Shown: piece by piece, positions 4,668 through 7,711 of the stretch
How positions within the stretch are numbered: the stretch's first letter is position 1
Layout: each line of letters starts with the position of its first letter
Assembly (NCBI RefSeq): GCF_004362745.1
Contig: NZ_SNXY01000006.1
Location: forward strand, 620,001 to 684,000
Reading direction: 5' to 3'
Length of the DNA: 64,000 bases
Source of the DNA: Oharaeibacter diazotrophicus
GTDB taxonomy: Bacteria; Pseudomonadota; Alphaproteobacteria; Rhizobiales; Pleomorphomonadaceae
The notes under the pieces: model-generated
What the model was told of the DNA's origin: nothing
Database searches by the model: none
Seen by the model: only the letters and a program-made list of their open reading frames with translations
Position numbers and translations under genes: made by a program

Positions 4668-4902
4668 ATAATAAACACGGAGACGCAGCGGACCATGTAA
4701 AGCCCCAGTAAATGGGGGCCGCGGGTTCGCAATTCAGAACGTTTCCGATCGAGCGCGGTCTGAGTCTTGGGAGGATAGCCCCGGCTGGCGCGGAAATCGC
4801 AGCCGCCTCTACGAACGAGAGGGAGGAAACTCGTTCGGAGAAGTACAAGGGGTGACACGCCGAACTGAAGAAAGCAGGGCGAAAGCCCTGCTTTTTCTTT
4901 TT
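4668..4902 (+). ncRNA. candidate structured small RNA of about 235 nt
   Basis: This stretch has a promoter-like sequence at its left end and a strong intrinsic terminator at its right end, with no convincing open frame between. Two internal hairpins are evident: CCCCA/TGGGG (4703-4707 with 4713-4717) and a perfect 8-bp stem CGAACGAG/CTCGTTCG (4812-4819 with 4830-4837), whose 10-nt loop is AGGGAGGAAA. I do not recognise 6S, tmRNA, RNase P, SRP RNA or a known riboswitch. It is a free-standing transcript candidate between proS (divergent) and the oxidase gene. A long leader with attenuator for the oxidase gene is possible, but 284 bases separate the terminator from that start. Confidence 0.5.
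4871..4902 (+). terminator. intrinsic terminator with GNRA loop
   Basis: AAAGCAGGGC (4871-4880), loop GAAA, GCCCTGCTTT (4885-4894), then a T-rich run TTTTTCTTTTT to 4902. This is the clearest Rho-independent terminator in the window. The T-tract marks the plus strand as the transcribed one. Confidence 0.85.
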
Positions 4903-5186
4903 AAATCGATGTACCCGCGCTCGTGGCGATCGGTTCATCGGCGCCGCCGACCAAGCCCGGTCCCGTTGGCCGATCCTTCGTCGAGATTGCTCCGGTGCGA
5001 AGCCGGCGTCGGGTGGGCCTTCCGACCGCTCGCGAATCGTCCCCGACCGGCCCGCCGCACCGTGCGTTTACCCTGGTGCGGGATGCGCCGAGGCTCTTCA
5101 CCGGCGATTCAACACTCGCGTGCCGTAATCCCGCCGCCCGTCAATAGAGGCGTGCGGAGCCTCCGTCCGCACGGCAGCGTCGTCCG

Positions 5187-7103
5187 ATGTCCCGCTTCGT
5201 GCTCCCGGTGCTCCCGCTCGTCGCCGCCGCGACCGCCCTGCCCGCGTCGGCGGCGACCGGCGACATCACGGAGATGCTGCTGATCGGCCGGTCCGCCGGC
5301 CAGTGCGCCGCCGTCGTCGCCGGCGGCACGACGCCGGGCACGCCGGTGACGCAATGGACCTGCTGGGGAACCGCCGGACAGGTGTTCGACGCCCGCGCCG
5401 CCGGCGGCGGCTACACGATCGTCGACCGCAACGGCAAGCTCTGCCTCGCCGTGAAGGGCGGCCCGAAGACGACCGGCGCCGCCGTCACCGTCGAAACCTG
5501 CGCCGGCACCAAGGACCAGGTCTGGGCGCCGATCGGACGCGGCGGCGACGACGTCTCGCTGAAGAACGCCGCCTCCGGCCTCTGTCTGGCGGTCGGCGCG
5601 ACCGGGCGGCAGGACGGCGATCCGTTGGTGCAGATGCCCTGCGAGGCCTCGGCGACGCAGACCTTCGTGACCGCGCCGCGCAAGGGCACCTCGTCGTGGT
5701 CCGGCATCCTGCCGACGCCGATGCCGGCGGTCGCCTCCACGGTGCTGCCGAACGGCAAGGTGCTGCTGTGGTCGGCGCGCAATCGCTTCAAGTTCGGCTA
5801 CGGCGAGATCGGCCGGACCTACACGGCCGTATTCGACCCGGTCACCGGCAAGGCCGGCGAGCGCGTCGTCTCCAACACGAACCACGAGATGTTCTGCCCG
5901 GGCATCGCGACGCTCGCGGACGGCCGCGTGCTGGTCAACGGCGGCTCGAGCAGCTTCGCCACCTCGCTCTACGATCCGAAGACCAACGCCTGGAGCAAGG
6001 GCGCCGCGATGAACGTGCCGCGCGGCTATCAGGCCGACACGGTGCTCGGCAGCGGCGACGTCTTCACGCTCGGCGGATCGTGGTCGGGCGACCTCGGCCA
6101 CCGCATGGGCGAGGTCTGGAACGCCACGTCCGGCTGGCGCCTGCTCCCCAAGGTCGACGGCGACGACTTTGCCGGCAACGATCCTGGCGGCATCTTCCGC
6201 GCCGACAACCACATGTGGCTGTTCGGCTGGGGAACGAAGGACGTGTTCCACGCCGGCCCGGCCGCGGCGATGCACTGGATCGACACCACCGGCGACGGCG
6301 CGGTGAAATCGGCCGGCAAGCGTGGCGCCGATCCCTATTCGATCAACGGCAGCGTCGTGATGTACGACGCCTACCGCCTGCTGAAGGCCGGCGGCGCGCC
6401 CGGCTACGAGAGCGGCGACGGCACCACCGCCGCCTACACCATCGACTTCTCCGGCGGACCGACCAAGCCGGTGCGGGTGACGCGCCAGAAGCCGATGCTG
6501 TTCCCGCGCGCCTTCTCCAACGCCGTCGTGCTGCCCTCGGGCGAGGTGGTGGTGATCGGCGGCCGCTTCTCCGCCTCGACCAGCTCCGACGCGAACGCGA
6601 TCATGGTGCCGGAGCTGTGGTCGCCGGCGACGAAGACGTTCACCCGGCTCGAGGCGATGTACGTGCCGCGGCACTATCATTCGAGTGCCGTGCTGCTCAC
6701 CGACGGGCGGATCTTCGTCGGCGGCGGCGGCGTCTGCGGCACCTGCGTCAACCATCCGGACGCGCAGATCCTGACGCCGCCCTATCTCTTCGCCGCCGAC
6801 GGCGGCCCCGCGGTCCGGCCGGTCGTGACCAAGTCGCAGACCGCCGCCGTGCGCGGCGCCACGCTGAAGGTGACCACCGACCGGGCCGTCGCGAAATTCG
6901 CCCTCGTGCGGATGGGCGCGTCGACCCACACGATCAACAACGACCAGCGCCGCGTGCCGCTGACGATCGCCGCGAAGAGCGGCACCAGCTACACGCTGAC
7001 CGTTCCGGCCGATCCCGGCCTGATGGTCGGCGGCAACTGGCTCCTGTTCGCGCTCGACGCCAAGGGCGTGCCGAGCGTCGGCAAGGTCGTCCGGATCCGC
7101 TGA
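5187..7103 (+). CDS. secreted copper-radical oxidase (galactose-oxidase-like, AA5) with N-terminal ricin-type lectin domain
   Basis: This 638-residue protein has a Sec signal peptide (1-22, ending ASA), a ricin-B beta-trefoil region (about 25-165), a seven-bladed Kelch-type propeller (about 170-530) and a C-terminal DUF1929 immunoglobulin-like domain (about 535-638). The galactose oxidase active site is complete. Cys237 (in MFCPG) lies 44 residues before Tyr281 (in RGYQ), the same spacing as Cys228-Tyr272 in the fungal enzyme; Trp299 (GGSWSG) matches Trp290; Tyr497-His498 and His581 (THTINNDQRR) match the remaining copper ligands. The family oxidises primary alcohols or aldehydes with O2, giving H2O2. 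The substrate here is unknown; the lectin domain suggests a polysaccharide or surface glycan. The gene is followed 13 bp later by an SCO-type copper chaperone gene. Confidence 0.88.
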   Translation: MSRFVLPVLPLVAAATALPASAATGDITEMLLIGRSAGQCAAVVAGGTTPGTPVTQWTCWGTAGQVFDARAAGGGYTIVDRNGKLCLAVKGGPKTTGAAVTVETCAGTKDQVWAPIGRGGDDVSLKNAASGLCLAVGATGRQDGDPLVQMPCEASATQTFVTAPRKGTSSWSGILPTPMPAVASTVLPNGKVLLWSARNRFKFGYGEIGRTYTAVFDPVTGKAGERVVSNTNHEMFCPGIATLADGRVLVNGGSSSFATSLYDPKTNAWSKGAAMNVPRGYQADTVLGSGDVFTLGGSWSGDLGHRMGEVWNATSGWRLLPKVDGDDFAGNDPGGIFRADNHMWLFGWGTKDVFHAGPAAAMHWIDTTGDGAVKSAGKRGADPYSINGSVVMYDAYRLLKAGGAPGYESGDGTTAAYTIDFSGGPTKPVRVTRQKPMLFPRAFSNAVVLPSGEVVVIGGRFSASTSSDANAIMVPELWSPATKTFTRLEAMYVPRHYHSSAVLLTDGRIFVGGGGVCGTCVNHPDAQILTPPYLFAADGGPAVRPVVTKSQTAAVRGATLKVTTDRAVAKFALVRMGASTHTINNDQRRVPLTIAAKSGTSYTLTVPADPGLMVGGNWLLFALDAKGVPSVGKVVRIR

Positions 7104-7116
7104 GGAGGGCCAGCCG

Positions 7117-7677
7117 ATGCGCCGTGCGATCCGAACCGCCCTCGTCTTCGCGTTCGTCGCTCTTTCCGGCGCGGCGCTTGCACAGGACGGCCCGCAGGTG
7201 GCGCCGATCTTCGATCTCGGCACCGCCGCCGGCGGCACGGTGTCGTCGGCCGGGCTCGACGGCCGGCCCTACGCGATGTTCTTCGGCTTCACCCACTGCC
7301 CGGACGTCTGCCCGACCACCTTCGCCGAACTCGGGCTCGCCCTCGCCGCGCTTGGACCGGCGGCGAAGGACTTCCACGTCCATTTCGTGACGGTGGATCC
7401 GGACCGCGACACCCCGGATGTGGAGCGCGCCTTCCTGTCGGCCTTCGATCCGCGCATCGTCGCGCTCACCGGCCCGACGGCGGATCTCGCCGCGCTCGCC
7501 GACGACTACGGCGTCGTCGCGCGCAAGGTGCCGTTGTCGGACGGCAGCTACACCTTCGAGCACACCGCCACGATCTTCCTGGTCGACCGTGACGGCATCG
7601 TCGCCGACCGGGTCGCCTACATGGACGGGTCCGAGGTGATGGCGGCGAAGATCGGCAGGCTGATCGGGGTGGAGTGA
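7117..7677 (+). CDS. SCO1/SenC/PrrC-family copper chaperone
   Basis: This 186-residue protein has a signal peptide (1-22) and a thioredoxin-like SCO domain. The copper-binding CPDVC motif is at Cys61/Cys65, and the conserved third ligand is His149 (FEHTA). SCO proteins bind Cu in the periplasm and usually help assemble the CuA site of cytochrome c oxidase. Here the gene starts 13 bp after the copper-radical oxidase gene, behind a GGAGGG ribosome site, and no oxidase subunit gene is nearby. A role in metallating or protecting the secreted oxidase is therefore plausible but inferred. Confidence 0.88.
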   Translation: MRRAIRTALVFAFVALSGAALAQDGPQVAPIFDLGTAAGGTVSSAGLDGRPYAMFFGFTHCPDVCPTTFAELGLALAALGPAAKDFHVHFVTVDPDRDTPDVERAFLSAFDPRIVALTGPTADLAALADDYGVVARKVPLSDGSYTFEHTATIFLVDRDGIVADRVAYMDGSEVMAAKIGRLIGVE

Positions 7678-7711
7678 ACGCCCCGCCCTGTCCCGCGAAA
7701 CGTGGGCGCCC

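What the first reader, a model, noticed from the sequence alone, without database searches (positions are those of the whole stretch)
5187..7103. Bacterial galactose-oxidase-like enzyme with a complete Cys-Tyr copper site and a lectin domain
Copper-radical oxidases (AA5) are best known from fungi. Here the Cys-Tyr pair keeps the fungal 44-residue spacing (Cys237, Tyr281), the stacking Trp lies 18 residues further (Trp299) as in galactose oxidase, and Tyr497, His498 and His581 complete the site. The N-terminal ricin-type domain and signal peptide point to an extracellular glycan target and local H2O2 production.
Basis: partly seen in the sequence, partly recalled or inferred. Interest (0 to 1): 0.7.

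Follow-up and report, generated by a model that had tools for sequence, protein, structure and literature searches.

The report
Bacterial galactose oxidase with copper-chaperone partner
This bacterium carries a secreted, galactose-oxidase-like copper enzyme with its whole radical site intact, next to a gene for a copper-delivery protein; the enzyme belongs to a known but little-studied bacterial family, and the repeated pairing with that delivery gene suggests how bacteria load its copper.

Summary
Window 5187-7103 (+) encodes a 638-aa exported protein whose catalytic domain is a galactose oxidase (PDB 9g43, Pseudoarthrobacter siccitolerans, 495 bits; fungal 1gof, 408 bits; GlxA only 101 bits). 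Cys237, Tyr281, Trp299, Tyr497, His498 and His581 align exactly with fungal C228/Y272/W290/Y495/H496/H581 and are invariant in over 80 bacterial relatives. Bacterial enzymes of this kind are already known, so it is a new member, not a new kind.

(1) The 'lectin' is a ricin-type trefoil, but the sugar-binding Asp is Ala in all three repeats, so glycan targeting is unsupported. The pocket also lost the galactose-stacking Phe (F464 becomes Ser466), unique among intact relatives examined. (2) A SCO copper-chaperone gene starts 13 bp downstream. A SCO gene flanks the oxidase in 52 of 56 alpha/beta-proteobacterial loci, but in 0 of 17 Actinomycete loci; the SCOs come from two deeply separate clades. 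A sister genus has the same site with neither gene.

Best model: SCO supplies copper in the periplasm, the Cys-Tyr cofactor self-assembles, and the secreted enzyme oxidises a primary alcohol or sugar with H2O2 release. Substrate unresolved; oxidase activity inferred, not shown.

The parts
5187..7103 (+). Galactose-oxidase-type copper-radical oxidase, 638 aa
   Evidence: ORF and Pfam; PDB matches 9g43/9g8h and 1gof
5187..5255 (+). Probable Sec signal peptide (residues 1-23, approximate)
   Evidence: By eye; model of low confidence at residues 1-22; no predictor run
5280..5663 (+). Ricin-type beta-trefoil (residues 32-159); QVF, QVW, QTF present; Asp of the CxDx motif replaced by Ala in all three repeats
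   Evidence: Pfam PF00652/PF14200; motif table; alignment to CBM13 1knl
5682..6815 (+). Catalytic Kelch beta-propeller (about residues 166-543)
5895..5897 (+). Cys237, thioether partner (GaO C228)
6027..6029 (+). Tyr281, thioether-linked radical Tyr (GaO Y272)
6081..6083 (+). Trp299, stacking Trp (GaO W290)
6198..6200 (+). Arg338 (GaO R330), galactose O3/O4 contact kept
   Evidence: PMC11267884
6408..6410 (+). Glu408 (GaO Q406), substituted
6582..6584 (+). Ser466 (GaO F464), loss of the stacking Phe; only such intact case among the relatives examined
6675..6680 (+). Tyr497 and His498 copper ligands (GaO Y495, H496)
6816..7097 (+). GO-like early-set domain (residues 544-637)
   Evidence: Pfam PF09118
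6927..6929 (+). His581 copper ligand (GaO H581)
7103..7108 (+). AGGAGG Shine-Dalgarno-like site of the SCO gene, at the 13-bp gap between the genes
   Evidence: sequence
7117..7677 (+). SCO1/SenC copper-chaperone-like protein, 186 aa, Cys61, Cys65, His149, signal peptide by eye; probable operon partner
   Evidence: Pfam PF02630 142.5 bits; residues
4807..7710 (.). Segment without counterpart in sister-genus genome G005, where proS and smpB flank a short stretch with no long gene: GalOx-SCO cassette

Best explanation
The locus is a two-gene cassette: an exported galactose-oxidase-type copper-radical oxidase of the bacterial AA5_2-like lineage, and a SCO protein that supplies it with copper. Shown here: complete copper/Cys-Tyr site in the sequence, galactose-oxidase fold in the model, 13-bp gene spacing, lineage-wide pairing with SCO, and an empty site in a sister genus. 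Inferred: both are exported by Sec; SCO (Cys61/Cys65/His149) hands copper to the apo-oxidase in the periplasm; copper and O2 then form the Cys237-Tyr281 thioether radical cofactor; the enzyme oxidises a primary alcohol (probably a sugar CH2OH) to an aldehyde with O2 reduced to H2O2. The native substrate is probably not simply free galactose, because the stacking Phe is lost and neighbouring pocket residues differ.
For: Sequence and fold. All six catalytic residues present and invariant in the family. SCO directly downstream in the window and a SCO gene beside the oxidase in 14/16 alpha and 38/40 beta loci (the two beta exceptions are cut by contig ends), same strand in all but one, 0/17 Actinomycetes. 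The window SCO and all eight others tested pass the Pfam SCO cut-off. The SCOs fall in two clades divided by very long branches, one alphaproteobacterial (Hyphomicrobiales) and one mostly beta, so the pairing probably arose at least twice. None beside the three GlxA-like loci examined. Empty proS-smpB site in G005. In the window's family nearly all genomes have one SCO; the two carrying GalOx have four and three. Precedent: in Streptomyces lividans liquid cultures the sco mutant holds only immature, uncrosslinked GlxA, rescued by copper (PMC4736821).
Against: No activity, copper content or crosslink was measured. The fungal enzyme matures with copper and O2 alone (own knowledge), so SCO may be dispensable when copper is plentiful. 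Actinomycete, gammaproteobacterial and two alphaproteobacterial relatives have no SCO within the flanks examined. SCO proteins can also act as thiol-disulphide reductases. The oxidase gene itself has no obvious Shine-Dalgarno.
Confidence: 0.75

Rival explanations
1. The oxidase is real, but the adjacent SCO protects it by redox chemistry (keeping Cys237 reduced before copper arrives, or handling H2O2 by its thioredoxin-like fold) and does not deliver copper.
For: SCO shares the redoxin fold (weak AhpC-TSA and Redoxin hits); the oxidase needs a free Cys before crosslinking and makes H2O2.
Against: The window SCO keeps the copper-binding Cys61, Cys65, His149 set, and in S. lividans added copper replaces Sco (PMC4736821).
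Confidence: 0.15
2. The enzyme is a galactose 6-oxidase in the strict sense, with galactose or galactosides as native substrate.
For: The Trp/Arg pair that best marks galactose oxidases is kept (W299, R338) and the nearest solved bacterial enzyme 9g8h is complexed with galactose (PMC11267884).
Against: Q326 to Gly334, Y329 to Phe337, Q406 to Glu408 and especially F464 to Ser466; [quoted passage not shown]
Confidence: 0.35
3. The protein is not an oxidase in vivo but a structural or inactive homologue.
For: No catalytic activity was tested; the ricin domain has lost its canonical Asp residues; long end branch of 0.52.
Against: All six copper/radical positions are kept despite that long branch, and a copper-chaperone gene sits beside it.
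Confidence: 0.07

Closest known systems
Galactose oxidase from Pseudoarthrobacter siccitolerans (PDB 9g43, 9g8h)
   Same: Best sequence and fold match over residues 151-637; same copper/radical residues; also Q326 to Gly and Y329 to Phe
   Different: About 40% identity in the structural alignment; it keeps F464 and has Asp at 406; its Arthrobacter relatives (76-81% identical to it) show no SCO neighbour within the 5-kb flanks
Fungal galactose oxidase, Fusarium (1gof; CAZy AA5_2)
   Same: All catalytic residues at the same spacing; same three-part layout of N-terminal sugar-binding-type domain, propeller, early-set domain
   Different: N-terminal domain is ricin-type here, F5/8C-type there; four pocket residues differ; no dedicated chaperone known to me for the fungal enzyme
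GlxA of Streptomyces (4unm)
   Same: Bacterial copper-radical oxidase whose maturation depends on a Sco protein (PMC4736821)
   Different: Only 101 bits to the window enzyme; NCBIfam GlxA model 128 against cut-off 800; sco lies in a separate operon with ecuc and dtpA
Uncharacterised oxidases of Methylopila, Chelatococcus and Chenggangzhangella (L012-L014, L016, L026, L031)
   Same: Nearest relatives (up to 59% identity), ricin trefoil plus oxidase plus downstream SCO
   Different: Keep F464; some have tandem oxidases before one SCO

Membership tests
Copper-radical oxidases (CAZy AA5) | Cys-Tyr crosslink pair plus Tyr, His, His copper ligands on a Kelch-type propeller | tested here: met
   Residues aligned; fold match
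Copper-radical oxidases (CAZy AA5) | Actual thioether bond, bound copper and oxidase activity | not testable with these tools
   Needs protein
AA5_2 (galactose/alcohol oxidases) | Closer to galactose oxidase than to glyoxal oxidase or GlxA, with second-shell Trp in the GaO position | tested here: met
   495 and 408 bits against 101 for GlxA and 36 for glyoxal oxidase 9n3u; tree. CAZy's own subfamily models were not run
AA5_2 (galactose/alcohol oxidases) | F464 equivalent, reported conserved in all characterised members (PMC11267884) | tested here: not met
   Ser466. A substrate-contact residue, not one that defines the catalytic site
Galactose 6-oxidase activity | W290/R330 pair | tested here: met
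   W299 and R338; the paper calls the pair a key indicator, not proof
GlxA (NF052501) | Score over the curated equivalog cut-off | tested here: not met
   128.5 against 800
SCO1/SenC copper chaperones | PF02630 over cut-off with CxxxC and distal His | tested here: met
   142.5 against 22.8 bits; Cys61, Cys65, His149
Ricin-type sugar-binding lectins (CBM13) | Trefoil with three QxW-like repeats | tested here: met
   (two of three are QxF)
Ricin-type sugar-binding lectins (CBM13) | Sugar-contacting Asp in at least one repeat (ricin D22 position) | tested here: not met
   Ala in all three repeats; role of that Asp from own knowledge

The most novel reading that the evidence does not exclude
Proteobacterial galactose oxidases form a dedicated maturation module with SCO copper chaperones, assembled at least twice from different SCO lineages because copper must be inserted in the periplasm of two-membrane cells; the window enzyme within it has a re-shaped, more open pocket for a substrate other than galactose.
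Probability: 0.5. Interest if true: 0.55.

Novelty: new member of a known kind. Interest (0 to 1): 0.4.

Why it matters
The enzyme adds a divergent bacterial member to a small characterised set and could have an unusual substrate range. The repeated oxidase-SCO pairing gives a direct test of whether radical copper oxidases need a dedicated copper chaperone in Gram-negative bacteria, extending what has been shown for Streptomyces GlxA. A link between Sco proteins and such oxidases from genome context was suggested before (Banci 2007, as cited in PMC4736821; I could not read that paper), so the idea is not wholly new.

Tried and rejected
GlxA membership: rejected on score. Other conserved neighbours: all-against-all clustering of flanking ORFs, as far as its output was shown (it was cut), gave the oxidase and SCO families as the widely shared ones; the other large clusters look like antisense shadow ORFs. 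Recent foreign origin by composition: cassette GC (about 0.71) matches its surroundings. Pocket geometry: coordinates of the model were not available, so the effect of Ser466 could not be modelled. Papers on the P. siccitolerans enzyme were not found in the library. Origin from or to fungi: not addressed, only one fungal sequence in the tree.

Full report
Observation. The open frame at 5187-7103 (+) is real and complete. Pfam places a ricin-type trefoil at about residues 32-159, Kelch repeats, and a galactose-oxidase early-set domain at 544-637. The best PDB sequence matches are the bacterial galactose oxidases 9g8h/9g43 (495 bits), then fungal galactose oxidase (1gof, 408 bits); GlxA scores only 101 bits. 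Foldseek names 9g43 as Pseudoarthrobacter siccitolerans, and its sequence is 80-81% identical to two Arthrobacter loci. C237, Y281, W299, Y497, H498 and H581 match fungal C228, Y272, W290, Y495, H496 and H581. The stated spacings are exact.

Family. A scan of one genome per species found 243 related loci; the best 80 were kept. Closest are Methylopila, Chelatococcus and relatives (order Hyphomicrobiales for Methylopila), which group with the window enzyme at 97% SH-aLRT, the window enzyme having a long end branch of 0.52. In the window's order 12 of 397 sampled genomes have one at E <= 1e-60, the window's own included. The six catalytic positions are invariant in all galactose-oxidase-type rows aligned and in the full-length added rows (one frame ends early).

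Substrate pocket. Relative to the fungal enzyme: F194 kept (F203), Q326 to G334, Y329 to F337, R330 kept (R338), Q406 to E408, F464 to S466. PMC11267884 states that F464 is conserved in all characterised members and that the W290/R330 pair is the key indicator of galactose 6-oxidase activity. Among more than 80 relatives plus those, only the window enzyme has Ser there; one has Trp, and one apparently degraded frame (L112) has Leu. The loop has the same length as the fungal one, so misalignment is unlikely. I infer a more open pocket; the direction of any specificity change is unknown.

Lectin domain. The trefoil is recognisable, but the CxDx motif that carries the sugar-contacting Asp in ricin and CBM13 reads CAAV, CLAV, CLAV, and the alignment with 1knl shows the same replacement. 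By a simple motif count, 38 of 46 trefoil-bearing relatives keep at least one acidic residue. Canonical sugar binding is therefore unsupported in the window protein, though a non-canonical site is not excluded.

SCO partner. A SCO1/SenC gene (7117-7677) starts 13 bp after the oxidase stop with AGGAGG upstream. An HMM built from these SCOs hits beside the oxidase in 14/16 alphaproteobacterial and 38/40 betaproteobacterial loci, both beta exceptions being truncated by contig ends; same strand in all but one (L074); 0/17 in Actinomycetes. It lies downstream in some lineages and upstream in Paraburkholderia/Caballeronia/Cupriavidus. With mostly one to five SCO genes per genome, chance presence within about 10 kb would be around or below 1% (own estimate). 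These loci are related to each other, so they are not independent trials; the independent evidence is that the linked SCOs fall into two clades separated by very long branches, with differing gene order. No SCO lies beside the three GlxA-like loci taken as controls. The window SCO and eight other linked SCOs pass the Pfam cut-off. In the SCO tree the window's SCO groups with other SCOs of its own genome rather than clearly with the Methylopila oxidase-linked ones, but that group contains long branches flagged as unreliable, so joint inheritance of the pair with Methylopila is not established.

Cassette. In G005, another genus of the same family, proS and smpB flank a short stretch without a long gene; window 4807-7710 has no counterpart there. 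Most genomes in the family lack the oxidase, so gain in this lineage is the simpler reading, but loss elsewhere is not excluded. The window genome holds four SCO genes, one near a PCuAC-like gene and one near a nosZ-like gene by inspection, consistent with one chaperone per copper enzyme.

Mechanism. Export, copper delivery by SCO, self-processing of the cofactor and alcohol oxidation with H2O2 release follow from the family and from S. lividans, where the sco mutant in liquid culture holds only uncrosslinked GlxA and copper rescues it (PMC4736821). None of these steps was measured for this protein.

Verdict.

Noticed in passing
4712-4899 (+): Rfam ar9 alphaproteobacterial sRNA (46.5 bits, cut-off 45) with an intrinsic-terminator-like hairpin at 4869-4896, between proS and the oxidase.
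   Followed up: partly
L002 1342-3501 / L009 7420-9579 (own genome, C6 about 555.5 kb): A second copper-radical oxidase, GlxA/glyoxal-oxidase-like, with a C-terminal AbfB domain and no SCO neighbour, about 70 kb from the first.
   Followed up: partly
L033 2041-7227; L008 3561-8660; similar very long frames in L038, L041, L050, L051, L055, L065, L069, L105, L110, L111: Galactose oxidase fused to Ig/PKD/F5-8C domains and a CCP_MauG / RoxA-like cytochrome c end (Pfam on L033 and L008 only), several followed by SCO. An H2O2-making oxidase joined to a peroxidase-like haem domain looks unusual.
   Followed up: partly
L012 4482-9030; L013 4449-9021; L108, L109: Tandem oxidases before one SCO; the second copy has lost R330 (Leu) and Y329 (Ser/Met), suggesting a different substrate.
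   Followed up: partly
L095, L096 (own genome): Other SCO genes lie near a PCuAC-like gene and a nosZ-like gene, as if each copper enzyme has its own SCO; assigned by eye only.
   Followed up: partly
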